DNA of 33,809 bases. It comes from a virus. This document shows, one piece after another, positions 3,703 to 32,429 of this stretch; position 1 is the first letter of the stretch; every line of letters starts with the position of its first letter. The stretch lies in the IMG/VR virus record IMGVR_UViG_3300042879_003265, positions 1-33,809 of that record; one strand, given 5' to 3'. The position numbers and the translations under genes were made by a program. Below the pieces are notes generated by a model. It was not told the origin of the DNA. It did not search any database and saw only the letters and a list, made by a program, of their open reading frames with translations.

Positions 3703-4236
3703 CTACAACTTTACTATCCAGCTGTTATCCGAAAACAACTCCAAAGGCTCGCCAAGACAATCCCGAACCGCCGAAGCAACCTCTTCCATATAAAAGTCGT
3801 GTCCAGCGATATAACCGCCCGGCTTGACCTTGCTCTTCCAATCGTTTATATCCGCTACAACCGCATGGTAAGTGTGGTCAGCGTCAATGTAAACCATATT
3901 CAAGGAAGCGTCCTCAAAGAAAGAAGCGGCATCCGAGCCGGTCATCTGCATCTTTTTGATATTGGGGTATTCAGGCAAAATTGCATCAAACATCCTCTCG
4001 GCCTCTTTGGTTTCCTGCCAAGCCCAAGGGTCAACGCAATAAAGCGTCTTGCAATGCAAGGCAAGCACTCTGCTACTAACCCCCGAAAACGAACCAACCT
4101 CAACAACAAGGTCTTTTGCTTTTAGATACTTGGAACAAAGGTCAATGAGGCCATCAACCAAGTTTCCAGGGGCAATAGGCACGAAATAAACACGAGGAAC
4201 ACCCCTTAGTGACTCAATCTTTTCTTTTTTATTCAT
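3703..4236 (-). CDS. SAM-dependent methyltransferase (Methyltransf_24-like)
   Basis: A 177-residue class I methyltransferase. Motif I is 'VVEVGSFSGVSS', followed by the acidic strand end in 'YCVDPWAW' and by 'MVYIDADHTY' and 'KPGGYIAGHDFY'; this run is characteristic of the Methyltransf_24 family, often found in sugar and polysaccharide loci. The ATG at 4236 is preferred to an upstream TTG because it gives an 8-base overlap with the preceding glycosyltransferase gene. As last gene of the glycosylation block it could cap or decorate a sugar by O- or N-methylation. The fold call is firm; the substrate is inference. Confidence 0.85.
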   Translation of the reverse strand: MNKKEKIESLRGVPRVYFVPIAPGNLVDGLIDLCSKYLKAKDLVVEVGSFSGVSSRVLALHCKTLYCVDPWAWQETKEAERMFDAILPEYPNIKKMQMTGSDAASFFEDASLNMVYIDADHTYHAVVADINDWKSKVKPGGYIAGHDFYMEEVASAVRDCLGEPLELFSDNSWIVKL

Positions 4237-4963
4237 GGTTTTTGATTTGCTCAAAGTTATTAATAAGATACTTTTCTTCTTCGTGGTTTACCAAGACATC
4301 GTTTATGAACACCGATTTAAGTCCGTTCTCCAACATATAAGGCCGAACTCGCTCCCACAAATCGCCATCAGCAGGCATTGATCCATCCATCGTTAACTCG
4401 TAAACATCCCGAAACAAAAAAGGGATTTTAGAAAAGTTCATACACACGGTGGCCGTATTCAATTCCCCAAACTTAGGGTAATGCTCAAAATACCTCCATC
4501 CCATTGGAACGGGGGGAGAAGGGAATGTATTGCCATTCAAATAAATAGCCTTGCAAAAAACAAAGTCAGCCCCTGTTTCTAAAATGCAATCATTTACCGA
4601 TTCAAGGTATTGTGGGTAATAAAAGTCATCGTGGTTCTGAAGGCAAATATGCGTGAAACCATCCCCCATAGCGGCTTCTATTCCTGTATTCATTGCGTTG
4701 ACACCGCCATAGTTCCAAAGCAAAAACGAATCCTTGTACTTATCCCTCTCCTTAGCGTAGCTTAAATTAATGGCTTTAAGCCTATCGTCATAGCTATCGG
4801 CGATATTCGTAAACTCATAGCCATCGTAATACTTGTCCCCAATCATATAAACCACAAAGTCTTGGTGCGTCTGATTGTAAATGCTATCAAGCAATCTGCG
4901 AACATAAAAGCCGCTTTTGCCGTCTGGCCGATAATAGGTCGGAAATACAATAGGAAGCGTCAT
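4229..4963 (-). CDS. GT-A family glycosyltransferase (GT2-like)
   Basis: A 244-residue protein with the GT2 layout: an N-terminal 'LPIVFPTYYRP' strand, 'LLDSIYNQTHQDF', then 'GGVNAMNTGIEAA' (about 86-98) and 'LQNHDDFYYP', whose HDD (111-113) takes the place of the DxD metal and nucleotide-sugar site. It is shorter than many GT2 enzymes and has no membrane segment, so it is probably cytoplasmic. It overlaps the methyltransferase by 8 bases and is one base from the next gene upstream, as in a translationally coupled operon. Base composition looks more AT-rich than the tail and portal genes, suggesting separate origin. Confidence 0.8.
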   Translation of the reverse strand: MTLPIVFPTYYRPDGKSGFYVRRLLDSIYNQTHQDFVVYMIGDKYYDGYEFTNIADSYDDRLKAINLSYAKERDKYKDSFLLWNYGGVNAMNTGIEAAMGDGFTHICLQNHDDFYYPQYLESVNDCILETGADFVFCKAIYLNGNTFPSPPVPMGWRYFEHYPKFGELNTATVCMNFSKIPFLFRDVYELTMDGSMPADGDLWERVRPYMLENGLKSVFINDVLVNHEEEKYLINNFEQIKNHE

Positions 4964-4964
4964 A

Positions 4965-5708
4965 TCAAAAGAAGCGAGAATAATTCACTATTGGCATTCT
5001 ATCCCATATCTGCCCAATAACCGCTTTCTTCCACTCGTAATAGGGGTTGCCATCAAAATACAAGTCCCAAGTCAAATGATAGGATTGGCTTCTTCCACAA
5101 ACAAGCCATTGCCCACCCATACTTAAAACCGCATTATGGATATAGACATCTATGTAGTGAATGCTTTTCAAGAAATCAATTTGACTTGTCCTGTAAGTCA
5201 AAAAACAATTTGAGGTAATGCCCTCATAATGCGAAAGAGGAATGGATTGTCTTTCTTTTTGCCTGGCCAAAAAAATGTCCGTTCCTACAACCCGATGCTC
5301 TCCTCTATCGTAATTGTTTTCTAAATAAAGAGGGACTGAACTAACAACGCATCTTGGGTTATTAAAGGCCAAGACAAGTTCATCCATTGCATTCTTTATG
5401 TCATACATAAAGAAATCCCCATCCGTAATTGTCAAATACTCGTATTGCTTAATAAGCGAATCAAAATCAACCAAGAAACAATCTATGGAAGTGGCAGATA
5501 TATTTTGCTGAAACTGAATATAGCCAACCAAATTGTCTGCCGTTTGCTTCTTTCCCTCAAAGTAATTCCGAATGGCAATGGAGTTCTCGGATATGTTTTC
5601 AACAATGAAATAGTCAAAAGATTCATCGTAAACCGAATCAAAACTCTTTTTTATGATGTCCTCTTGCTGAAAGGCCAAGAACACGATTAAATGTCTATTT
5701 TGACTCAT
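4965..5708 (-). CDS. Putative glycosyltransferase (GT-A-like)
   Basis: A 247-residue protein beginning 'SQNRHLIVFLAFQQEDIIKK'. The clearest enzyme signature is 'YLTITDGDFF' (about 91-100), a DxD-type motif in the expected central position after a Rossmann-like half. A later part includes 'RVVGTDIFLAR' and several aromatic residues that could line a sugar pocket. The ATG at 5708 is chosen over an upstream TTG; it leaves a 14-base overlap with the acyltransferase gene. Placement inside a run of sugar enzymes supports the call, but sequence similarity to a named family was not evident by eye, so the acceptor and donor are unknown. Confidence 0.65.
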   Translation of the reverse strand: MSQNRHLIVFLAFQQEDIIKKSFDSVYDESFDYFIVENISENSIAIRNYFEGKKQTADNLVGYIQFQQNISATSIDCFLVDFDSLIKQYEYLTITDGDFFMYDIKNAMDELVLAFNNPRCVVSSVPLYLENNYDRGEHRVVGTDIFLARQKERQSIPLSHYEGITSNCFLTYRTSQIDFLKSIHYIDVYIHNAVLSMGGQWLVCGRSQSYHLTWDLYFDGNPYYEWKKAVIGQIWDRMPIVNYSRFF

Positions 5709-6258
5709 CCTCAAGTCTTTTGGATAACTCAACCATTTCTCTTTTTCTGTCCTTTACCTTTCTCAGAGGGCTTCCAACACAAACGCTATAAGGCTCAACA
5801 TCCGAACTTACAAGCGACAACGCCCCAATAGCCGCTCCTTCACCAATGTTCACGCCAGGCAAAACAACGGTGTTGCACCCTAAAATCACATATTTCCTCA
5901 AAAAGACAGGGGAATCCTTGACATTGCTGAAGCCTTTCGGTAAGGTTGGTCCAATAAGGTACTTTCCCGAAAAATCATCCGAGGAGCTATAAATAGAGCA
6001 TTTACCCGATACATTGCTGAAATCTTCAAGTGTAATTTTGGCCGCACCAATCATCGTTACCATACAGGCAATATGGACATAGTTTCCAATATAAATACCT
6101 CCACTTCCTGCGCTAAGGATGCAGAAATCGTCAATCCTTACATTAGAGCCAACATGGATGTTCTTCGCATTGTAAATGCTTGCCTTGTCGCTAATAAGGA
6201 CATTATCGCCAATGCTCCCAAAGCCGATAGACCATAGTTGTTCTTGAGTGTAAAACAT
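5695..6258 (-). CDS. Left-handed beta-helix hexapeptide acyltransferase
   Basis: A 187-residue protein with repeated hexapeptide turns: 'ISDKASIYNAKNIHVGSNV' near the start, 'GIYIGNYVHIA', and at the C-terminal side 'VILGCNTVVLPGVNIGEGA' followed by 'CVGSPLRKVKDR'. This is the pattern of the WbbJ/NeuD/FdtC group that transfers acetyl or other acyl groups from CoA to sugars. It is immediately downstream (TAATG overlap) of a DegT-type aminotransferase; this pair is known in other systems for making N-acylated amino sugars such as those in O-antigens. Fold call firm; sugar identity is inference. Confidence 0.88.
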   Translation of the reverse strand: MFYTQEQLWSIGFGSIGDNVLISDKASIYNAKNIHVGSNVRIDDFCILSAGSGGIYIGNYVHIACMVTMIGAAKITLEDFSNVSGKCSIYSSSDDFSGKYLIGPTLPKGFSNVKDSPVFLRKYVILGCNTVVLPGVNIGEGAAIGALSLVSSDVEPYSVCVGSPLRKVKDRKREMVELSKRLEDESK

Positions 6259-6884
6259 TATTGCTTGTAAATATCAAACTTAGACAAATTGGGATAAGGG
6301 AGTTCTAAATCATCGTTTTGCTTTTTGCTTCCATCCGCATTGTAAAACTGATTCATCAACAACAACCCCCTGGCCGCAAGTTCCGGCATCATATAGAAAT
6401 TCCATCCGAGCATATCAAAGGAGTCATCGTGATAACTGCACTCCCTCCTACCGCTATACCTTGCCCTTCTAAACCACGCATAAGCGTCCTCGTTGTCCGT
6501 GAGTATCGCTCCTCCCTTGGATAGCCTAAAGTGCTTGTATGGCCCTGTAAACGATATGCACATAAAGGTATTGGGTATATACATATCTCCCGTGAATCTC
6601 AAAGCACTATCCCAAACCCTGCTCGGTTTGAGTTGGTATGCCCCCTTCAAGGTCGTGCCATCAACGGGGGAAAAATTAACCTTTGCTCCTGCGTGGATAA
6701 TCTCGCACGGCACCGATGGGTAGGTCCGTTCTGGAATGGTTATCGTTGTCCCAGCGACCTTTTCGTACATAAGGGCCAAAAAAAGGCCATTGGATTGGTT
6801 GTCCAAGGCAACGGCGTAAGGAGAACCCGTATAATCGGCAATGCGTTTCTCAAACTCATTGGTAATGTCGTAAACGGTTTTCAT
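6258..6884 (-). CDS. Compact DegT/DnrJ/EryC1-type sugar aminotransferase
   Basis: A 208-residue homologue of PLP-dependent sugar aminotransferases, about half the usual 370. Recognisable blocks are 'EFEKRIADYTGSPYAVALDN' near the start, 'IPERTYPSVPCEIIHAGA', 'VWDSALRFTGDMY' (place of the conserved Asp), 'CISFTGPYKHFRLSKGGAIL' (candidate PLP lysine in PYK) and 'GWNFYMMPELAARGLLL'. The segment between the second and third blocks is shortened, and the small C-terminal domain is missing. It could be a minimal enzyme, a partner of a host protein, or inactive. Reading frame is intact and overlaps neighbours by one base (TAATG) at each end, so it does not look like a decayed gene. Confidence 0.78.
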   Translation of the reverse strand: MKTVYDITNEFEKRIADYTGSPYAVALDNQSNGLFLALMYEKVAGTTITIPERTYPSVPCEIIHAGAKVNFSPVDGTTLKGAYQLKPSRVWDSALRFTGDMYIPNTFMCISFTGPYKHFRLSKGGAILTDNEDAYAWFRRARYSGRRECSYHDDSFDMLGWNFYMMPELAARGLLLMNQFYNADGSKKQNDDLELPYPNLSKFDIYKQ

Positions 6885-9110: not shown

Positions 9111-9689
9111 TTAAACTCCGAAGATAGAGGATGCGTTGGAAGGCGCATTGACTTTCTTGGGTAATTGGTCTGGGCCGAGCGAAGCACGGGCCGTACAGTT
9201 GAACATCTGAAGCTCCTTGTTGGAAGCAGGGACATTAACCGGTAAGCACACATAATTCACGGGCTGGGTGATGAACATCACCTCATCGGAGCCACACAGG
9301 TACAGAATCAATCCCGTTACACGCTTGTTGAGTGCGCTATAAAAGGCAATGGTTCCATCGGTTGTGTTGGCATCCATCCAGGTAGCGGTAAAGTCAAACC
9401 CAGCCAAGAGCGAGGTTGGGCCACATCCAACCGGGTTGTCAACATCTACGGGAGATGCATCAGGTACCGTTCCACGAACATTCTTGATAATTTTGAGGTC
9501 ACCAGCGTTGATAGCGGTGGTGTATTTTGCTGCGGTGCTGAAGTCAGCGTCCGTTGCAAAAGTAGTGCCAGGGCCAAATGCGTCCTCCTCAAGAATACCA
9601 ATCGCAGAGATACCGCCACGCAGATAATTGCCACAAAGGACAAGTTCATGGTCTGGTAAAGCACCACATCCATATTCTAAATAAGCCAT
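9111..9689 (-). CDS. Putative abundant virion protein (major tail protein candidate)
   Basis: A 192-residue, mostly beta-type protein rich in Thr, Ala, Val and Asn with several cysteines ('MAYLEYGCGALPDHELVLCG', 'VGCGPTSLLAGF', 'LYLCGSD'). It is the only gene in the left arm with both its own promoter (TATCTTTG at 9760) and its own strong terminator, an arrangement expected for a product needed in many copies. It follows the tail genes, and no other gene in this window fits a major tail tube protein, but its position after the tape measure is not the usual one. I do not recognise the family; a decoration protein or spike is possible. Confidence 0.6.
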   Translation of the reverse strand: MAYLEYGCGALPDHELVLCGNYLRGGISAIGILEEDAFGPGTTFATDADFSTAAKYTTAINAGDLKIIKNVRGTVPDASPVDVDNPVGCGPTSLLAGFDFTATWMDANTTDGTIAFYSALNKRVTGLILYLCGSDEVMFITQPVNYVCLPVNVPASNKELQMFNCTARASLGPDQLPKKVNAPSNASSIFGV

Positions 9690-17595: not shown

Positions 17596-17963
17596 GGATT
17601 GATATATTTGAATTGAAAGGAAAAGCAAGATTCTGCGGTTGGGTAAGTCGGAGCGAGGGTCAGCGGTAATCCAACGCCATCCAGGTTCGGCGAGGCACCG
17701 CCGGTGTAACTCGCATAAGCCCTTACCTCGTAGGTTCGGCCAATGGCGAAATACGCTTGGAGGTCATCAATCGTTGCGTTGGGGATGGTGATCGCTCCCG
17801 ACACGGGCGTGGCCATCGTGAAACGGAAGGGGCGGTCAAGGGCCACATCGGTAATCACAACGGCAACAGCTGCGCTTGGCGTGGTATAGCCAATCACAAC
17901 GCTATCGGCACAGATGTCAAAGGTGCCAATATCGGGGCAGTCGGTGCATTCAAGACAACTCAT
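17592..17963 (-). CDS. Small beta-rich protein after terL, function unknown
   Basis: A 123-residue protein with a Cys-rich start (MSCLECTDCPDIGTFDIC) followed by beta-type sequence rich in Thr, Ala, Val and Pro ('VAVVITDVALDRPFRF', 'RTYEVRAYASYTGG'). It has no signal peptide or membrane helix. It overlaps terL and the holin-like gene through ATGA junctions. The composition suggests a small virion component such as a head or tail decoration protein or a neck factor, but no family was recognised. A TATCTTTG box lies inside the end of terL, 100 bases upstream. Confidence 0.7.
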   Translation of the reverse strand: MSCLECTDCPDIGTFDICADSVVIGYTTPSAAVAVVITDVALDRPFRFTMATPVSGAITIPNATIDDLQAYFAIGRTYEVRAYASYTGGASPNLDGVGLPLTLAPTYPTAESCFSFQFKYINP

Positions 17964-19327
17964 CGGCTTGGTGTTTTAAGTTCGGGGACAAAATTGTTGT
18001 TAAAGTGTGTGTAACCGCTCTTTTTGAGGTGTTTAAGGTACCATTCGCTCAAGAAGCTGTTGCAAAGATACCGAAAACAGTCGGCAAAGTCGGATTGTTG
18101 GGTAATGATATATCGGTTTCGCTTTATGATGTTGCCAGCGGCATCGCACGCCACCATCTTCATGTCCCTCGCCACGCCGGGGGCCGTCTTGGGGTTTATC
18201 TTGATGTCGGGGTGGAATTGGAGCAGGTAATTGCATTGCGCCCGGCTGTTCTCGTGCTTCGGGTTCGGAGCGACCTTGATTTGCCGCTGCGCCAATCCAA
18301 GGCCCCTTGCTAATTGTTCGTAGTAGTTGGCATTGTCCCTCTGCGATAAATCGCCCCGCTTGCCCATCGCATCGCCCGTGAGCAGGCAGGAGAACAGGAA
18401 GGGGGCGTACTTGGCCTTAATGGTGTCCACCATCTTGGGGATGCTCCCATCAACGACCTGGAACTCGTCAACGATGTGAACGTGGTCCCCTTGGCTATCC
18501 GTCCACATCTGCGCCACCAGACCGCAGAAGGGTTGTAAGTTGAAGTCAAGGGAGATGTAAATGGGGAGGTTCGGGTTGAAGGAAGCGTTGTGGGTTTCGT
18601 GCTTCTTCGCTTCGTAAGAGATGAAGAAGGGGTTTTCGGGTTTCTCCTGCACCTCCCAATCGCCCTCCACGAATCGCTTGTACTCGTATTCGGGCATATT
18701 GTCCCGGAGGGATTGAAGGTAATCTTCGGGGATGTGGGGGTTGTCGGTAATCTTGGAGGGGATGTACGCCCAGGTGGGGGGAAGGTCGTTCTCCTTCCAC
18801 TTGTCGTAAATCAACTCCTTCACCCAATTATTGCTTGGGTTGCAAGTGGCCATCACCACAATGGGCGGTCGGCCTTCGCAATTCAGCCACGAACCGGCAC
18901 GCTCCAAGACCTTGTAAAGGAGTCCTTCCTGGCACTCGTTAATCTCGTCAATCCCACCGCCGTTAATCTCCAAGCCCTTGAATCGGTCAAAGTCTTTATC
19001 GGTATCGTAATTCTCGCCCATAAAGATCAACTCGGATCCGTTGGTGAACCGCACAATCTGGGCCTGCTTGTCCCAAGACGCAACGTGCATCCCTAAGCCT
19101 TGGTTCATCAGGGATGTGAAGGTCACAAGCGTTGTACGCTGAAGCGTGGGCATACTCTGCCTGATGATCACCCACCTGCTGCCGGGATATTTGGAGCAGA
19201 GGGAGATATAGGTTAGAAGGAGGCAGTAAGTCTTCCCGCCTCGGATCGCTCCACCAAAGAGGATGAATTGCTTCTCCCCCGACAAAGCCATCTTATACGC
19301 CTGACTCTGCCTCGCCGTTAGTTTCAT
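17960..19327 (-). CDS. terL: Terminase large subunit (packaging ATPase-nuclease)
   Basis: A 455-residue two-domain packaging motor. The ATPase part has Walker A 'GGAIRGGKT' (25-33), Walker B 'GGGIDEIN' (123-130) and the coupling motif 'TCNPSNN' (161-167). The nuclease part has 'ISLDFNLQPF' (Asp261), 'LLTGDAMGKRG' (Asp319) and 'SDFADCFRYL' (Asp413/Asp416), the three acidic positions of the RNase H-like fold. The ATG at 19327 is preferred to a TTG two codons upstream; the gene overlaps the small-terminase candidate by 35 bases. Confidence 0.95.
   Translation of the reverse strand: MKLTARQSQAYKMALSGEKQFILFGGAIRGGKTYCLLLTYISLCSKYPGSRWVIIRQSMPTLQRTTLVTFTSLMNQGLGMHVASWDKQAQIVRFTNGSELIFMGENYDTDKDFDRFKGLEINGGGIDEINECQEGLLYKVLERAGSWLNCEGRPPIVVMATCNPSNNWVKELIYDKWKENDLPPTWAYIPSKITDNPHIPEDYLQSLRDNMPEYEYKRFVEGDWEVQEKPENPFFISYEAKKHETHNASFNPNLPIYISLDFNLQPFCGLVAQMWTDSQGDHVHIVDEFQVVDGSIPKMVDTIKAKYAPFLFSCLLTGDAMGKRGDLSQRDNANYYEQLARGLGLAQRQIKVAPNPKHENSRAQCNYLLQFHPDIKINPKTAPGVARDMKMVACDAAGNIIKRNRYIITQQSDFADCFRYLCNSFLSEWYLKHLKKSGYTHFNNNFVPELKTPSR
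18063..18070 (-). promoter_or_regulatory. Possible internal promoter -7 box in the end of terL
   Basis: TATCTTTG on the minus strand with TTTG 14 bases upstream, 100 bases before the 123-aa gene. It lies within coding sequence, so it may be chance; the match is exact and the same octamer is used at 9053, 9760 and 22317. Confidence 0.35.
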
Positions 19328-19697
19328 CCACAATTGGTTCAGTCAACTCAAGCACAAAAGGCCCCGTGTTCGGTGCGGTGGTCTGCTGCTGGGGCTTGCC
19401 ATACAAATAGGCCAAGGCCAATTCCATCGCCCGCATATTGCCACGAATCGCCTCCGTGACCAAACGGGCAATCAACGCATCCATCCGCTTCACACCGCCA
19501 ATCGTCCTGTCCAAGTCGGCATCAAGCAAGTCCCGAATATCTCGCCTCGTGACCGTCTTAGGCTTCATAGAACGAGAGTTCAAGAGAACAGGTATCTCTG
19601 CCTTCGGTTCAGCACTCGGAACGCTCTCAGGGGCATTAGAATCATCCTCCTCAATAATCTCCACCTTCTTCTTCTTTACAAACTCATGTATCGCCAT
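19293..19697 (-). CDS. Small terminase subunit candidate
   Basis: A 134-residue protein directly before terL. A basic start and an acidic, Pro/Ser-rich linker (about 12-40) lead to a helical domain 'VTRRDIRDLLDADLDRTIGG' and 'LIARLVTEAIRGNMRAMELA' (about 85-105), ending in 'YLYGKP'. The last part resembles the helical domain of DUF5681-like proteins found next to terminases. Small terminase subunits bind the packaging site and hand it to terL. The call rests mainly on position; no clear helix-turn-helix is visible, so confidence is moderate. Confidence 0.6.
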   Translation of the reverse strand: MAIHEFVKKKKVEIIEEDDSNAPESVPSAEPKAEIPVLLNSRSMKPKTVTRRDIRDLLDADLDRTIGGVKRMDALIARLVTEAIRGNMRAMELALAYLYGKPQQQTTAPNTGPFVLELTEPIVDETNGEAESGV

Positions 19698-19704
19698 GCA
19701 CCCA

Positions 19705-19712
19705 CAAAATTA
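19705..19712 (-). promoter_or_regulatory. Promoter -7 box for the terminase/late transcript
   Basis: TAATTTTG on the minus strand, 7 bases upstream of the start of the small-terminase candidate. A TTTG lies 23 bases before it, inside the usual -33/-7 range. This probably starts the long late transcript toward position 1. Confidence 0.55.
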
Positions 19713-19760: not shown

Positions 19761-19821
19761 TACACAAAAAAGGTGTTTTTTCCCACAAAGGGCGCAATTT
19801 GTTTTTTATCCCTTACTATAT

Positions 19822-19913
19822 ATATAAGTGTCTATATACTATATAGACATCTATATTTAATATAGACATCTATATAACATATAGACATCTATATAGAATA
19901 TAAACACTTATAT
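19822..19913. repeat. Five-unit array of 16-bp near-palindromes at exact 19-bp spacing
   Basis: Units start at 19822, 19841, 19860, 19879 and 19898. The three central units are identical (ATATAGACATCTATAT); the first reads ATATAAGTGTCTATAT and the last ATATAAACACTTATAT, which is nearly the reverse complement of the first. The whole array is therefore roughly symmetric about its middle unit. Spacers are 3 bases (ACT, TTA, AAC, AGA). This looks like a protein-binding array: operators for the late promoter 110-200 bases to the left, or replication iterons. Confidence 0.85.
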
Positions 19914-20153
19914 TAAATCTTATGCTCATTTTTTTTTGAGTCGCATTTTGGACACCAAAAAGAGTCTAAAAACAGCGTCAAAAAGGTACCCGATTTTAGC
20001 CATTTTGTCAAACTGTGTTAAGGGGTGAGAAATAATGTGGGGAGGGGAACTCGCCCCACTGTCCACAAAAATGGGCGGGTTTGTCCTATTTACTATACAC
20101 TACGGGCGGGCCGGGCATACGGGCCACAGGGCCACAGCTTGCAGGGCCTGGGC

Positions 20154-22459: not shown

Positions 22460-22580
22460 TCTGGTCCTGCTGTTGGTCCCTGGTTCTGGTCCTGCTGTTG
22501 GTCCTGGTCCCTGGCTTGACCTTTGGACCTTTGGATCTTTGGACCTTTGGACCGGTTGACCTTTGGACCCTGGACCTGGA
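22460..22580. repeat. GGNCC-rich tandem repeats with foldback potential
   Basis: The 20-base block at 22460-22479 (TCTGGTCCTGCTGTTGGTCC) recurs exactly at 22485-22504, and a TTTGGACC octamer recurs several times in 22520-22570. GGTCC dominates the left half and GGACC, its complement, the right half, so single strands could form a long imperfect hairpin of roughly 120 bases beside the divergent promoters. Confidence 0.7.
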
Positions 22581-22599
22581 CCCCTGCACCCTCCAGGCC

Positions 22600-22698
22600 T
22601 TGACGATTGACGATTGACGATACCTTGACGATTGACGATTGACGATAAAAAAAATAATAAAATAATTTGAAGATAGTGGTGCATTTGACGATTGACGA
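22600..22698. repeat. Eight TTGACGA heptamers in three tandem clusters
   Basis: Exact 7-bp tandem copies at 22600-22620 (three), 22625-22645 (three) and 22685-22698 (two), each cluster ending TA. The last cluster runs into the rightward promoter (-7 box at 22702). Candidate operator sites for an early regulator, or origin iterons. Confidence 0.85.
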
Positions 22699-22701
22699 TA
22701 T

Positions 22702-22709
22702 TAACTTTG
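22702..22709 (+). promoter_or_regulatory. Rightward early promoter -7 box
   Basis: TAACTTTG on the plus strand, 30 bases before the first rightward gene, with TTTG 14 bases upstream inside the last TTGACGA cluster. The overlap suggests repression or activation through those heptamers. Confidence 0.5.
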
Positions 22710-24603: not shown

Positions 24604-25284
24604 ATGCACAATTCTAAGGGCATTAAGGGCGATATACGCCTTGATTTTGACGAAGCGAACCAACTGCTCATCGCATTGAGGAAAGCCGATTTGGAAGGCT
24701 CCCTGGCGTTCAAGGTGGTGCATCGCAAGGTCCGGGAGATTGTTGATTATCACCTTTACAAGGCCGCTAAGGGAGAGATGAAGTTGGCCAATAAGTATTT
24801 CTGCAACAAGAAGATGAAGAACGGCGTGAAGCGTGCAGAGGTTGGTCCTTGGTTTCCTTTGCCCCCCGTGTTGGTCTATGACCTTCGCAGGCACCTGGCC
24901 GCCGGTGACATCGTGCGGATTGCGAACGAGAATAATTGGAATTACAAGACCGTGAGGCATTGCCTTGATTTGCCTTCGGTGACGGTCACTCCAAGAGGCG
25001 TGACGAAGGTCAGGGATGCACCCCTCCGCTATCCCTTGGCCGTGATTAACCAACTGCTGAAGGCCGCTGAGAACAACCGAAGACCGGTGAAGCACACCCG
25101 AAGAAAACAAGTGCGATTGCGAGTTTACATTGAAAAAAACCTTAAACCCTTTTACCATGAATTTGACATCATTGAACCCTACATCCCAGGAACCCCTCGC
25201 CAGCTGGCTAAGGCACATAAAGAGAGCGTGCAAGCGAAGTATAAAGCCGGATTACTCCGAGGTGAAGTCCCCGTTCAGGATTGA
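24604..25284 (+). CDS. Basic protein, possible DNA-binding
   Basis: 226 residues. A helical first part ('FDEANQLLIALRKADLEGSL'), a basic stretch ('FCNKKMKNGVKRAEVGPWFP'), then 'DIVRIANENNWNYKTVRHCL' (about 101-120), which has the spacing of a helix-turn-helix, and a basic 'NRRPVKHTRRKQVRLRVYIE' segment. It starts one base after the previous stop and ends inside a second small frame (25157-25330) read differently. Likely a regulator or nucleic-acid-binding early protein; the call is tentative. Confidence 0.6.
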   Translation: MHNSKGIKGDIRLDFDEANQLLIALRKADLEGSLAFKVVHRKVREIVDYHLYKAAKGEMKLANKYFCNKKMKNGVKRAEVGPWFPLPPVLVYDLRRHLAAGDIVRIANENNWNYKTVRHCLDLPSVTVTPRGVTKVRDAPLRYPLAVINQLLKAAENNRRPVKHTRRKQVRLRVYIEKNLKPFYHEFDIIEPYIPGTPRQLAKAHKESVQAKYKAGLLRGEVPVQD

Positions 25285-25352: not shown

Positions 25353-25544
25353 ATGAACCATCCCCTATACGATTTGAGGGAGGCGGCGCAATACCTAAGA
25401 CTGTCCACCCACGGCGTTCGGTATGCCGTACGAAACGGCTACCTAAACAAACTGCAACCACGGCCTGGGTCAAAAATCAGATTCACCAAGGCGATGTTGG
25501 ACGCATATTTATCAGGAAACAATAACCCCCAAACCAAACCATGA
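25353..25544 (+). CDS. Helix-turn-helix protein of the HTH_17/excisionase type
   Basis: 63 residues. 'YDLREAAQYLRLSTHGVRYA' followed by 'VRNGYLNKLQPRPGSKIRFT' and 'AMLDAYL' is the classical MerR/excisionase-like winged HTH_17 fold (helix-turn-helix, then a two-strand wing with a G-x-K-x-R-F core). The in-frame extension back to 25281 overlaps the previous genes and is rejected; the ATG at 25353 follows a CCCTCAAACCCAAACG leader. In phages such proteins act as excisionases or transcriptional switches. No integrase is visible in the window. Confidence 0.8.
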   Translation: MNHPLYDLREAAQYLRLSTHGVRYAVRNGYLNKLQPRPGSKIRFTKAMLDAYLSGNNNPQTKP

Positions 25545-25981
25545 AACCAAAACCACAAACCGTTACCCGGCCCGAAGCCATCAAAATCCTGATGAAGCGT
25601 ATGGGCCTAACCCTGGACGAAATCGCCAAAGAGTGCGAGGTCTCCATATCCACCGTGTTCTGGTGGAGCCAAGGCATCACGAGAATCAAGCAATTTGATG
25701 CGATTGATGCCTATTTCAAAGTCGTATGCGATGAGTACGAACCGGCATCGCCCAGAGTCATCAAAGCCTGCCTGACCAAGCCCGACCTCACGATGCCCCT
25801 CCGAGATGATGAGTATCGGAGGCTATTGATGGCGAGGAATAAGACGAGCATTGACAAAATCGCCCGAACCCTCAACATTGACCGCAATTATGTGTACCAA
25901 TGGAGCCACGGGATTGGGAAGAAACAGGATGTCAATAAAATTATTGAAAATAATTTTTCCAAGGTGGCGCAAGCAGGGTAA
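25541..25981 (+). CDS. Protein with two helix-turn-helix domains
   Basis: 146 residues with two similar HTH units: 'LTLDEIAKECEVSISTVFWW' (about 22-41) and 'TSIDKIARTLNIDRNYVYQW' (about 101-120), each followed by a short G-containing turn (SQGI, SHGIGK). It is a candidate regulator for repeated operators such as TTGACGA or the 19-bp array, which would suit a protein with two recognition heads. It overlaps the HTH_17 gene by ATGA, so the two are likely made together. Targets are inference. Confidence 0.75.
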   Translation: MKPKPQTVTRPEAIKILMKRMGLTLDEIAKECEVSISTVFWWSQGITRIKQFDAIDAYFKVVCDEYEPASPRVIKACLTKPDLTMPLRDDEYRRLLMARNKTSIDKIARTLNIDRNYVYQWSHGIGKKQDVNKIIENNFSKVAQAG

Positions 25982-27732: not shown

Positions 27733-28014
27733 ATGAGAAAACTAACTTTAAAACACGATGGAAATTGTGCTTTTGACGCTACCATTGAGCATAATGGTCA
27801 ATGCGACCCAAAAGAATCATATCTCGCCATAACCCTAAAAGACCAAGGAAAGTTTCGGGCAAAAGTTGAATGCATTGGCAACAGCGAAGACCCAAGCCAA
27901 ATATCCGAGGTAAGGCTCGTTTTTCTTGGAGCAGAAGAGAAATCCGCAATGGCAAGAGTTTTTAAGGAGTTTGCCAAAGAACTTGAAGACAACCTTTTCT
28001 TTTTTCCTATCTAA
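27733..28014 (+). CDS. Small beta-type protein, function unknown
   Basis: 93 residues ('MRKLTLKHDGNCAFDATIEH' at the start, 'VRLVFLGAEEKSAMARVFKE' near the end). Looks like a beta-sheet domain with one C-terminal helix. The leader CCAACCCTTAAATCC-AAAAACA directly precedes the ATG and is nearly identical to that of the next gene, so the two may be expressed at similar rates. Confidence 0.7.
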   Translation: MRKLTLKHDGNCAFDATIEHNGQCDPKESYLAITLKDQGKFRAKVECIGNSEDPSQISEVRLVFLGAEEKSAMARVFKEFAKELEDNLFFFPI

Positions 28015-28036
28015 CCAACCCTTAAACCCAAAAACA

Positions 28037-28522
28037 ATGAACACGAATCTATTTGAAACAACCCCCAAGACCCGCTACGCCCCCGCCAAGCCAAAGGTAT
28101 TTGGCTCCGAGCAAGACCGCTACAACCGCAAGGTCAAAGCGTTCTGGATGATTTGGACCGCCTCCTTCAATGGAGTTAGGAACCTTGACATCAACAAGAT
28201 TATGACCGACAACAATGTGGGTCGCACCTTCTACCTAACAATGCGTGACCAAGGCATCATCGCCAAAGGCTCTCGTCCAGGGCAAAACAAGTCGCTGTAT
28301 TACTCCGACTTCAACAAGGTCCCTACCCAAGAGGACATTGATAAGTGCATCAACGAGCAAAGCGTGAAGATCAAGGAAGTGTTCAAGACCTTCAAGGCCA
28401 AGCGAGCCGTTGTCCAGAAGCCCAACGAGATGGACGCTACCCTCAAAGACCTTCTGGCGAAAGCCGAGGAAGCCAACAAGCGTGTTGCCGAGTTGCTCTC
28501 AAGGTATCAATCAAGATCGTAA
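28037..28522 (+). CDS. Hypothetical protein, possibly winged-helix
   Basis: 161 residues. Basic first 45 residues ('PAKPKVFGSEQDRYNRKVKA'), then 'DINKIMTDNNVGRTFYLTMR' and 'DQGIIAKGSRPGQNKSLYYS', which could form a winged-helix DNA-binding unit, then a long charged helix to the end ('DLLAKAEEANKRVAELLSRY'). Leader: CAACCCTTAAACCC-AAAAACA before the ATG. Domain call is tentative. Confidence 0.6.
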   Translation: MNTNLFETTPKTRYAPAKPKVFGSEQDRYNRKVKAFWMIWTASFNGVRNLDINKIMTDNNVGRTFYLTMRDQGIIAKGSRPGQNKSLYYSDFNKVPTQEDIDKCINEQSVKIKEVFKTFKAKRAVVQKPNEMDATLKDLLAKAEEANKRVAELLSRYQSRS

Positions 28523-29585: not shown

Positions 29586-30176
29586 ATGCGACCCAACCCC
29601 GAATGCTACCTTGACCAGGACGAGTATGTCAAAGACCTGGAGGATTATGTGGACAAAATTGAGCGAGAAAACTTGATTTTTCAACAAAACCTCCTATATA
29701 TATATAATTATATAGACAATTCTATACATATAAATAATACTAATACTCTAAACACTCTAAAGGGTAGAGATAAAGGAGGGGGTGTGGGGGAGGAAAAAGA
29801 GAAGGGAACGTCCAAATACTCCAACAAAAACATCCGCAGGAACTCTAAACACTCCCAAGAAGAAATGATGGCTATGTTTGAGGGCTTCTGGAACTTCTAT
29901 GACAAGAAGGTCGGTAAGGACAAAGCCATCCTCGCTTGGTTCAAACTGAGCGATGAAGAGATTGAGAAAATCCGCAATACCCTTCCGACCTATTTAGAGG
30001 CTCACAGAGAGCGTAAGTTCCGTAAAGACCCCGTAAGATACCTAACCCATAAAGCGTTCAATGACGAGCTTCCTACGCAGTCTGGAGGCCATTCCCAACA
30101 CAAACCCTACCATTCAACCCAAAACGATGAACAACCACTCCGATTTTACACGCCTCCCAGCGGAATTGTACGCTGA
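29586..30176 (+). CDS. Replication initiation or helicase-loader-like protein
   Basis: 196 residues. A coiled-coil start ('YVKDLEDYVDKIERENLIFQ'), an Asn/Ile-rich low-complexity linker, and a C-terminal domain with 'FEGFWNFYDKKVGKDKAILA' and 'FRKDPVRYLTHKAFNDE', a pattern often seen at the end of phage replication proteins that recruit the DnaB helicase. The helicase gene starts inside it, 50 bases before its end. The linker is encoded by a very AT-rich tract (29690-29755) that could be the origin, as in lambda O. The domain call is by motif; the origin idea is inference. Confidence 0.65.
   Translation: MRPNPECYLDQDEYVKDLEDYVDKIERENLIFQQNLLYIYNYIDNSIHINNTNTLNTLKGRDKGGGVGEEKEKGTSKYSNKNIRRNSKHSQEEMMAMFEGFWNFYDKKVGKDKAILAWFKLSDEEIEKIRNTLPTYLEAHRERKFRKDPVRYLTHKAFNDELPTQSGGHSQHKPYHSTQNDEQPLRFYTPPSGIVR
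29690..29755. other. AT-rich tract inside the replication gene, possible origin
   Basis: About 65 bases almost free of G and C, containing ATATAGACAATTCTATA (29710-29726), close to the unit of the 19-bp array at 19822-19913 (ATATAGACATCTATAT). AT-rich unwinding sequence in a replication gene next to the helicase gene fits a phage origin. Confidence 0.45.
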
Positions 30177-31497
30177 ATACCAAGACCGACTCCTCGGCAT
30201 CCTCATTTGCGAAATCATCAAGCCGGGGGATATCGTCCTCCAACTCCGAGAGGAGTATTTTGATGAAGGAATCCGCAAGAATACCTTCAAAGCCATTCGG
30301 AGCCTTCGGGCCGAGGACAAGCCCATCAACACGCTGACCGTCCGTTCACGGATGATTGAGATGAATGTCCCCACCGATGTGGTGTTCCTTGCAAGCCTTG
30401 ACTCAGGGCTTTATTCCCACGATGGATGGAAGGTGTACCGGTACGAATTGCATTGCCGGTACATCCACGACCAAATTGAGAAGACCAAGATTGACTTTCT
30501 CAAGCACCAGGATGTTGATCGCCTCTACAAGGAAATCCAAGACATCAAGTCTTTAGACCCCGACCCGATTGCTACCGAGGTTCACGAATTGCTCTTGGGC
30601 TTTATGATGGGCCTCAACGAGGTCATCACGGGAGCGAAGGACAACAGCATCACCCGAACCTTTCATCACAACACCGACAGCCTGATAACGGGCTTCAAGC
30701 CTTCGGAGTTCATCATCCTGGGTGGCCGTCCTGCAATGGGCAAAACCACCTTGGCCCTGCAATACGCTCTCAACCAAGCGATGAACAAAAAGCCTGTGGC
30801 CTTCTTCACCTTGGAGATGTCCACGGAGCAACTGATGACCCGATTGGTTTCCAACCTTGCCGAGGTGGATGGAGAGGTCTTCCTGGACATCAAGGAACGG
30901 ATGAATGGTCAAGACTTTTTGGCCATCTCTCAGCACATTGATAAGGTCAAAGGCGCACCGTTGCACGTTGTGGATGTCCCCGGCATTGACCCTCAGCGGA
31001 TGGAATTGGAGTTGATAAAACTCATCAAGAAGCACAAGATTGAAGGGGCATACATTGATTACCTCCAACTGATTTCTCCCCTGCCAGAAGACCGAGGCAA
31101 GCCCCGAATTGACCAAGTGACCAACATCTCCAAGTACATCAAGACCATCTGCAAGAGGCTCAACATTTGGATTTGCTTGGTGTCATCGTTGTCCAGGGGC
31201 GTGGAGCAGAGGGACTCCAAGCGTCCCAAACCGAGCGACCTGCGTGAAACGGGCCAACTTGAATATGATGCCGACAAGATTCTGTTCGTGTATCGTCCTT
31301 CCGAGTATATGGAAGACCACGATCCCCAAAAGCAAGAACTCATTGACCTCCTTGAAATCCTTGTGAGGAAGAATCGGAATGGGAAGATTGGCACGGCTAT
31401 GGGGAAAATTAAACTTCAATACACAAAAGTGTTGGATTTTAATGGAAACATTCCTACCTTTGAGGAGAAGATTCAAACCCTAAAAGCGCCATTCTGA
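30127..31497 (+). CDS. Replicative DNA helicase, DnaB-like
   Basis: A 456-residue DnaB-family helicase. The N-terminal domain (about 1-115) is followed by a linker, then the RecA-like motor: Walker A 'GGRPAMGKTT' (199-208), 'FTLEMSTEQLMTRLVSNLAE', Walker B 'AYIDYLQL' (308-315), 'SSLSRGVEQRDSKRPKPSDL' (353-372), 'ETGQLEYDADKILFVYRP' and 'VRKNRNGKIG' with the arginine-finger region. The ATG at 30127 follows a CAACCCAAAACG leader and overlaps the loader-like gene by 50 bases; an earlier in-frame start is less likely. Unwinds DNA ahead of the fork as a hexamer. Confidence 0.93.
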   Translation: MNNHSDFTRLPAELYAEYQDRLLGILICEIIKPGDIVLQLREEYFDEGIRKNTFKAIRSLRAEDKPINTLTVRSRMIEMNVPTDVVFLASLDSGLYSHDGWKVYRYELHCRYIHDQIEKTKIDFLKHQDVDRLYKEIQDIKSLDPDPIATEVHELLLGFMMGLNEVITGAKDNSITRTFHHNTDSLITGFKPSEFIILGGRPAMGKTTLALQYALNQAMNKKPVAFFTLEMSTEQLMTRLVSNLAEVDGEVFLDIKERMNGQDFLAISQHIDKVKGAPLHVVDVPGIDPQRMELELIKLIKKHKIEGAYIDYLQLISPLPEDRGKPRIDQVTNISKYIKTICKRLNIWICLVSSLSRGVEQRDSKRPKPSDLRETGQLEYDADKILFVYRPSEYMEDHDPQKQELIDLLEILVRKNRNGKIGTAMGKIKLQYTKVLDFNGNIPTFEEKIQTLKAPF

Positions 31498-31752: not shown

Positions 31753-31911
31753 ATGAAATACGTTGGAAAGTGCGATAAGCACGGCCTGATACAACACGAT
31801 GTGACCCAGGCACAAATAGACATCAAGGGCGGTCCGTATTGCCCCTATTGCGGTTCTCTCGTTGATGTCATCGCAAAAAACACCGACAACAAAAAGCCCA
31901 AGACCAAATGA
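31753..31911 (+). CDS. Small zinc-ribbon protein
   Basis: 52 residues with Cys7, His10 and 'CPYCGS' (about 29-34), followed by a basic Lys/Asn tail. Looks like a single small zinc ribbon. The ATG at 31753 is 7 bases after the previous stop; a longer in-frame extension would lie within the preceding gene and is rejected. It overlaps the next gene by ATGA. Confidence 0.65.
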   Translation: MKYVGKCDKHGLIQHDVTQAQIDIKGGPYCPYCGSLVDVIAKNTDNKKPKTK

Positions 31912-32429
31912 TAGGAAAGATTGAACACACAATGGCCGAAGACATTATCGGCATTGTATCGGATTACTACGGAATCCACAAGGACAAGTTGTTCAGCAAG
32001 ACCCGTTTGTGGGATGTCGTTCACGCAAGGCAAGTGGCCTGCTATATGATTCGCAAGTACACCAACATCCCCAAGCTTGCGATTGGAAGGCAATACTTCA
32101 ACCAAGACCACTCCACCATCATCCATTCAATTCGGGCGGTTGAGAGGGATATTATGACCGATTACCGAGGCACGGAACGAGATGTCCAGGCCATCACCCA
32201 GGCGATTGAAGACCAACAGTCTGTCAGGATAAAAAAAGACCAAAGCAAGTATGTTGTCTTGCTGAAATTCAAGGCCGAGCCAGAGATGTATTTTGGCCCA
32301 GAGATGTATTTTGGCCCTTGGGAAACCGCTGAAATAGCGAACCAAATGTTGCAAGACAGAATAAAGCCGATGTTGGATATGAATGAGTGTGAGTCGGCTA
32401 CCGTTATCAAAGTGACTTCCATAGAATGA
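31908..32429 (+). CDS. Stand-alone DnaA domain IV-like DNA-binding protein
   Basis: 173 residues. Residues 10-82 follow the C-terminal DNA-binding domain of DnaA: 'IVSDYYGIHKDKLFSKTRLW', 'VVHARQVACYMIRKYTNIPK', and 'AIGRQYFNQDHSTIIHSIRA' with the DHST (67-70) of the DnaA-box-binding signature. There is no ATPase domain, so it cannot act as a full initiator; it might bind origin boxes, help load the helicase, or compete with host DnaA. The second half is unrelated and holds a six-residue in-frame duplication (PEMYFG twice). Overlaps both neighbours by ATGA. Confidence 0.82.
   Translation: MIGKIEHTMAEDIIGIVSDYYGIHKDKLFSKTRLWDVVHARQVACYMIRKYTNIPKLAIGRQYFNQDHSTIIHSIRAVERDIMTDYRGTERDVQAITQAIEDQQSVRIKKDQSKYVVLLKFKAEPEMYFGPEMYFGPWETAEIANQMLQDRIKPMLDMNECESATVIKVTSIE
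32281..32316. repeat. 18-bp in-frame tandem duplication
   Basis: CAGAGATGTATTTTGGCC repeated exactly twice (32281-32298, 32299-32316), giving PEMYFG-PEMYFG in the DnaA-domain protein. Confidence 0.9.

What the first reader, a model, noticed from the sequence alone, without database searches (positions are those of the whole stretch)
19822..19913. Perfectly phased 5 x 19-bp array with overall dyad symmetry
Five 16-bp near-palindromes start exactly every 19 bases; the three middle units are identical and the outer two are near reverse complements of each other, so the whole array mirrors about its centre. Such regular spacing, not a multiple of the 10.5-bp helix turn, places successive sites on different faces of the DNA. 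The array lies upstream of the late promoter. It looks like a deliberate protein-assembly site: operator, iteron origin or partition-like centromere.
Basis: seen in the sequence. Interest (0 to 1): 0.72.

Follow-up and report, generated by a model that had tools for sequence, protein, structure and literature searches.

The report
Probable twin phage replication-origin repeat array
A regular run of five palindromic repeats next to the DNA-packaging genes of an uncultured freshwater phage is probably a landing pad for the phage's DNA-copying machinery, because the same motif and the same easily melted DNA recur inside the gene for the replication-initiation protein.

Summary
The array is real: five 16-bp near-palindromes at exact 19-bp steps, 19822-19913, far above shuffled DNA. 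It lies 125 bp upstream of a TerS-like gene in a lytic tailed phage (probable Bacteroidota host). About 28 close relatives keep it with invariant units and variable spacers. More distant relatives keep the core TATAGA-NN-TCTATA but switch to a 16-bp period with 5-9 copies. The 19-bp step and overall dyad are therefore clade features, not the essence.

The same core, two copies 18 bp apart, recurs inside the replication-initiation gene just before DnaB in several relatives, once with an in-frame 39-bp duplication. In G005/G006 the block flanking the array region, AAATTGAGCGAATAAGAT, has its only near-copy (17/18) in that gene. In all four genomes holding both places, these are the two least stable 60-bp windows of the genome. 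The array-to-TerS distance varies from 125 to 900 bp, and no ParA or integrase was found.

Best reading: an iteron origin or initiator-binding locus paired with an in-gene origin, organised like SPP1 oriR/oriL. The binding protein is unproven. In the window's own clade the in-gene sites are degenerate and the initiator lacks the predicted winged helix.

The parts
19822..19913 (.). Array of five 16-bp near-palindromic units, 19-bp period; core TATAGA-NN-TCTATA in the three middle units
   Evidence: conserved in L006-L034
19817..19826 (.). (TA)5 tract abutting the TerS-side end of the array; part of the AT-rich, easily melted stretch
   Evidence: window 19817-19876 is the second least stable 60 bp of the window, next to 29694
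19915..19932 (-). Flanking block AAAATGAGCATAAGATTT, counterpart of AAATTGAGCGAATAAGAT of other clades
   Evidence: in the window's own clade this block has no good second copy
19705..19712 (-). Bacteroidota-type promoter -7 box TAATTTTG just before the TerS start (TAnnTTTG conserved in all clades)
   Evidence: sequence; consensus from own knowledge
19293..19697 (-). TerS-like gene (weak DUF5681 match), followed by TerL 17960-19333
29694..29753 (+). In-gene partner element: AT-rich linker DNA with TATAGA-N4-TCTATA half-sites; least stable 60 bp of the window; relatives carry two clean motif copies 18 bp apart here
29586..30176 (+). Replication initiation protein gene (phrog_270, E 1e-13), directly upstream of DnaB
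30061..31497 (+). DnaB-like replicative helicase
   Evidence: PF03796, 1.6e-64
31908..32429 (+). Protein with a DnaA C-terminal DNA-binding domain; candidate origin-binding factor
   Evidence: PF08299, 3e-20
24604..25284 (+). Conserved early protein with a predicted HTH-with-strands region; candidate binder of the array (low-confidence model)
25541..25981 (+). Double-HTH early protein; candidate binder, but its identity across clades does not track the array core

Best explanation
The array is an iteron-type binding site for a phage replication-initiation complex, with its own AT-rich unwinding stretch. It is one of two origin-like loci in this phage lineage: this expanded one in the intergenic region beside the terminase genes, and a short one inside the replication-initiation gene next to DnaB. 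Shown by sequence: the conserved units, the shared motif, the flanking block shared in the G005/16-bp clades, the genome-wide melting minima, and the gene context. Inferred: that a phage protein (the initiator complex, or an early HTH protein acting with it) binds the units cooperatively and opens the neighbouring TA-rich DNA for DnaB loading. Also inferred, by analogy with SPP1, that one locus starts theta replication and the other serves as a second origin or a fork barrier that starts concatemer replication.
For: Units are nearly invariant while 3-bp spacers vary in 21 aligned sequences. The core persists as the period changes from 19 to 16 bp and the copy number from 5 to 9. The same core lies inside the initiation gene: TATAGATGTCTATA and TATAGATAACTATA 18 bp apart in L070/L071/L119; two TATAGATAACTATA copies (the reverse complement of the end unit of the 16-bp arrays) in L125/L151/L152; a 39-bp in-frame duplication in L123. 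In 175 kb of contigs of the 16-bp clade, motif hits with at most 1 mismatch lie only in these two places. The flanking block has its best second match in the initiation gene in G005 and G006 (17/18) and in L041 and L039 (14/18); the G005 local alignment scores 25 against a null of 12.9 +/- 1.8. In W, G001, G005 and G006 the array region and the in-gene element are the two least stable 60-bp windows of the whole record. Ile codons of the in-gene stretch are ATA in 4/4 (window) or 5/5 (L070), against 18% genome-wide. The gene is a replication-initiation protein family member next to DnaB. SPP1 has the same layout: 44 kb, oriL inside gene 38, oriR in an intergenic region among late genes, each with direct repeats plus an AT-rich region (PMC6316719, PMC3485210).
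Against: In the window's own clade the in-gene copy is degenerate (half-sites 4 instead of 2 bp apart), the flanking block is not shared, and the local alignment is not clearly above the null (19 forward, 21 reverse, null max 19). GC3 skew around both loci was weak and inconclusive. DnaA-box-like sites are not strictly conserved. Low DNA stability does not by itself find an origin: lambda ori is not among lambda's ten least stable windows. No binding or replication data exist.
Confidence: 0.66

Rival explanations
1. Operator of a late-gene regulator: an early HTH protein (double-HTH 25541-25981, or 24604-25284) binds the array to control the late promoter before TerS.
For: The array lies 125 bp upstream of TerS with its conserved TAnnTTTG promoter box; the early operon encodes several HTH proteins.
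Against: The array-to-TerS distance ranges from 125 to 900 bp, with tRNA genes between them in some relatives. The motif recurs inside the initiation gene, far from a late promoter. The double-HTH protein is only about 29-30% identical between the two clades that share the same array core, but 62-66% identical between two clades whose arrays differ.
Confidence: 0.14
2. Packaging initiation site (pac-like): TerS binds the array next to its own gene.
For: The array lies upstream of TerS in every relative where both are present; many contigs end in this region; G001 is circular as assembled.
Against: TerS is about equally similar between clades with an array and the G005 clade without a clean one. 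The motif also lies in the initiation gene. Contig ends are scattered, with no common nucleotide, and the region is hypervariable. The distance to TerS varies.
Confidence: 0.12
3. Centromere-like partition site of a phage-plasmid.
For: A regular array of palindromes resembles small plasmid centromeres (general knowledge, not a tool result).
Against: No ParA-type ATPase (PF13614) and no integrase (PF00589) in six relatives, including one complete circular map.
Confidence: 0.03

Closest known systems
Bacillus phage SPP1 oriL/oriR with initiator gp38 (PMC6316719, PMC3485210)
   Same: About 44-kb lytic phage; two loci of repeats plus AT-rich DNA, one inside the initiator gene near the replicative helicase, one in an intergenic region by late genes; distance about 9-10 kb here against 12-13 kb; also encodes a Rad52-type annealing protein and a VRR-NUC-like protein (weak match).
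   Different: Iterons here are 14-bp palindromic cores at 16, 18 or 19 bp steps; the host is probably Bacteroidota; one clade lacks the initiator's N-terminal domain; homology to gp38 was not tested (SPP1 record not held).
Phage lambda ori, four iterons inside gene O
   Same: Repeats inside the initiator gene followed by AT-rich DNA; iteron starts 20-24 bp apart (record NC_001416).
   Different: Lambda has a single ori; here the larger array is intergenic; no sequence relation of the iterons.
Iteron plasmid origins (RepA-type)
   Same: Tandem repeats next to AT-rich DNA.
   Different: No plasmid Rep gene next to the array; the repeats are nearly palindromic and no plasmid match was found.
Flavobacterium phage 11b
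   Same: Nearest sequenced TerL (30% identity).
   Different: No comparable array; no isolated pair of low-stability outliers.

Membership tests
SPP1-type dual replication origin | Two separate loci with related repeats and AT-rich DNA | tested here: met
   (clear in the 16-bp and G005 clades; in the window's clade the in-gene repeats are degenerate but the AT-rich outlier remains)
SPP1-type dual replication origin | One locus inside the initiator gene, close to the replicative helicase gene | tested here: met
SPP1-type dual replication origin | Initiator binds the repeats at both loci | not testable with these tools
   needs footprinting; the 16-bp-clade initiator has a low-confidence predicted winged helix, the window's initiator lacks it
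SPP1-type dual replication origin | Initiator homologous to gp38 | not tested
   SPP1 record not available
SPP1-type dual replication origin | Theta start at one locus, switch to concatemers at the other | not testable with these tools
   inference by analogy only
Late-promoter operator | Fixed distance to the controlled promoter | tested here: not met
   125-900 bp; tRNA genes between in some
Plasmid-type partition centromere | ParA/ParB-type partner genes | tested here: not met
   (ParA only; small RHH or ParR partners not searched)
pac site bound by TerS | TerS specificity changes together with the array | tested here: inconclusive
Iteron plasmid origin | Adjacent plasmid Rep initiator | tested here: not met
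   neighbouring genes are terminase and hypothetical genes

The most novel reading that the evidence does not exclude
A dual-origin replication system in an uncultured Bacteroidota phage lineage in which the array's period is re-set between clades (19, 16 and 18 bp) while the core is kept, and in which the initiator's DNA-binding half was exchanged: fused N-terminal domain in one clade, lost in the other, where a separate small protein (window 27926-28522) is encoded instead.
Probability: 0.3. Interest if true: 0.65.

Novelty: new variant of a known kind. Interest (0 to 1): 0.5.

Why it matters
Experimentally known twin origins in a phage rest, as far as I could read here, largely on SPP1. A natural series of relatives, with copy number 5-9 and periods of 19, 16 and 18 bp around one core, would let one test how iteron spacing and number set initiator assembly, and whether a second origin beside the packaging genes triggers the switch to concatemers. 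It also gives an origin marker for an uncultured freshwater phage group.

Tried and rejected
GC and GC3 skew as origin evidence: weak, confounded by gene direction. DnaA boxes: the only exact TTATCCACA in G001 lies in the initiation gene near the in-gene sites, but synonymous changes break it in relatives, so it is not counted. A TTTGTKKAAAA motif flanking both loci in the window's clade was found after the fact and its letters vary; not counted. AlphaFold models of the initiator and of the 24604 protein have mean pLDDT about 50, and Foldseek gave only non-significant hits, winged-helix proteins among them. Genome-contig scan for two cores within 30 bp: 5 stretches; not followed up and not used. 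Plasmid and phage collections: no similar array. Two-core pattern in 2.9 million viral contigs: 38 stretches, and the array analysis places them in this phage lineage. SPP1 record could not be fetched. Low stability as a general origin finder fails on lambda.

Full report
OBSERVATION. The array is exactly where described: 16-bp units at 19822, 19841, 19860, 19879 and 19898, three identical in the middle, the outer two reverse complements except for one base. Shuffling the same AT-rich DNA does not reproduce its periodicity or palindromy. The window is an IMG/VR virus record of 33,809 bases. Its genes are those of a tailed phage: TerS-like and TerL, tape measure and other structural genes leftward; early genes rightward, with HTH proteins, a Rad52-type annealing protein, a replication-initiation protein, DnaB and a DnaA-C-domain protein. 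The nearest sequenced TerL is that of Flavobacterium phage 11b, 30% identity. The TAnnTTTG promoter type is also Bacteroidota-like (own knowledge), so a Bacteroidota host is likely but not shown.

RELATIVES. TerS-based search gave 50 loci. All close relatives whose contig reaches the site (TerS 86-95% identical, L006-L034) keep five units at 19 bp. Units 2-5 are almost invariant while 3-bp spacers vary more. Relatives with TerS about 70% identical keep the core TATAGATGTCTATA, but with one 19-bp step and then 16-bp steps, 5-9 units; L038 has 18/19-bp steps. The G005/G006 clade (TerS about 65%) has only a degenerate AT-rich version; reading it by eye, units at 16-bp steps can still be seen. The pattern of two cores within 30 bp, scanned over 2.9 million viral contigs, gave 38 stretches, which the array analysis places in this lineage.

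THE SECOND PLACE. The gene 29586-30176 matches a replication-initiation family (phrog_270) and precedes DnaB. In relatives its linker-coding DNA holds the same motif: TATAGATGTCTATA and TATAGATAACTATA 18 bp apart in L070/L071/L119; two exact TATAGATAACTATA 18 bp apart in L125/L151/L152, equal to the reverse complement of the last unit of the 16-bp arrays; and a 39-bp in-frame duplication of it in L123. In G005 and G006 the 18-bp block beside the intergenic region has its best other match in the genome (17/18) in this gene; in L041 and L039 the best other match (14/18) is also there. In 175 kb of contigs of the 16-bp clade no other place carries the motif with at most one mismatch. In every record that holds both places (W, G001, G005, G006) they are the two least stable 60-bp windows, and in G003 and G004, which lack the TerS side, the in-gene place alone is the outlier. 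The linker uses ATA for Ile almost throughout, against 18% in the window's other genes, which suggests selection on the DNA. Lambda was run as a yardstick: its ori is not a stability outlier, so this measure supports but does not prove an origin.

MECHANISM. The layout, two repeat-plus-AT-rich loci about 9-10 kb apart, one inside the initiator gene next to the helicase, one intergenic beside late genes, matches SPP1 oriL/oriR (PMC6316719, PMC3485210). G001 carries an exact 99-bp terminal repeat, so it reads as a complete circular map of 44,367 bp. I therefore think the array is an initiator-assembly site that opens the adjacent TA-rich DNA, acting as a second origin or as a fork barrier for the switch to concatemers. 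The binding, the melting and the switch are inferred. The reader protein is unknown. The 16-bp and G005 clades have an N-terminal domain in the initiator that models as a winged helix at low confidence. The window's clade and L070/L071 lack it and instead carry a separate small protein (27926-28522); the two are mutually exclusive over 57 loci, many from the same contigs, but this is one split between two clades and not independent evidence. The 24604 protein, conserved in all clades, is another candidate.

RIVALS. A late-promoter operator is disfavoured by the 125-900 bp variable distance with tRNA genes in between. A TerS/pac site is not excluded. A partition site is disfavoured by absence of ParA. 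No integrase was found either, in keeping with a lytic phage.

WEAKEST POINTS. In the window's own clade the in-gene sites are degenerate (TATAGA-N4-TCTATA) and the flanking block is not shared. Skew is inconclusive. All of this is sequence evidence.

Noticed in passing
window 22598-22704; L115, L118, L123, L124, L127, L129: Runs of TTGACGAT(T) octamer repeats in the intergenic stretch before the early genes, present in all clades looked at. Function unknown.
   Followed up: no
L118:1655-1736, L124:6054-6128, L127:1480-1556: A different 19-bp-period array (palindromic GGACACTGTCC type in L118) in the same intergenic region upstream of early genes; the window has GACCTTTG repeats at 22518-22577 instead. 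Might be an early operator array.
   Followed up: no
window 19705-19712 and all relatives: TAnnTTTG promoter box lies only 4-7 nt before the TerS ATG in every clade, suggesting a leaderless late transcript.
   Followed up: partly
L041:9195-9274 and 9531-9600, L043, L047, L051: tRNA genes or tRNA-like genes inserted between the array and TerS in members of the 16-bp clade.
   Followed up: partly
window about 22280, 22745, 22930, 23480: CCCTAAACCC-type leader repeats directly before many early start codons (and their complement before leftward genes), visible in the sequence.
   Followed up: no
window 3703-6884: Sugar-transfer and aminotransferase-like gene island not found in the relatives compared; it holds a chance-like near copy of the array unit at 5140-5155.
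   Followed up: no
window 27926-28522 versus the N-terminal part of the initiator in L041/L045: Mutually exclusive distribution between clades: 32 loci with the small protein, 25 with the fused N-terminal domain, none with both.
   Followed up: yes
about 1.3 kb upstream of TerS in L006-L055: Many contigs end in this hypervariable stretch, at scattered nucleotides; could reflect strain variation or packaging ends.
   Followed up: no
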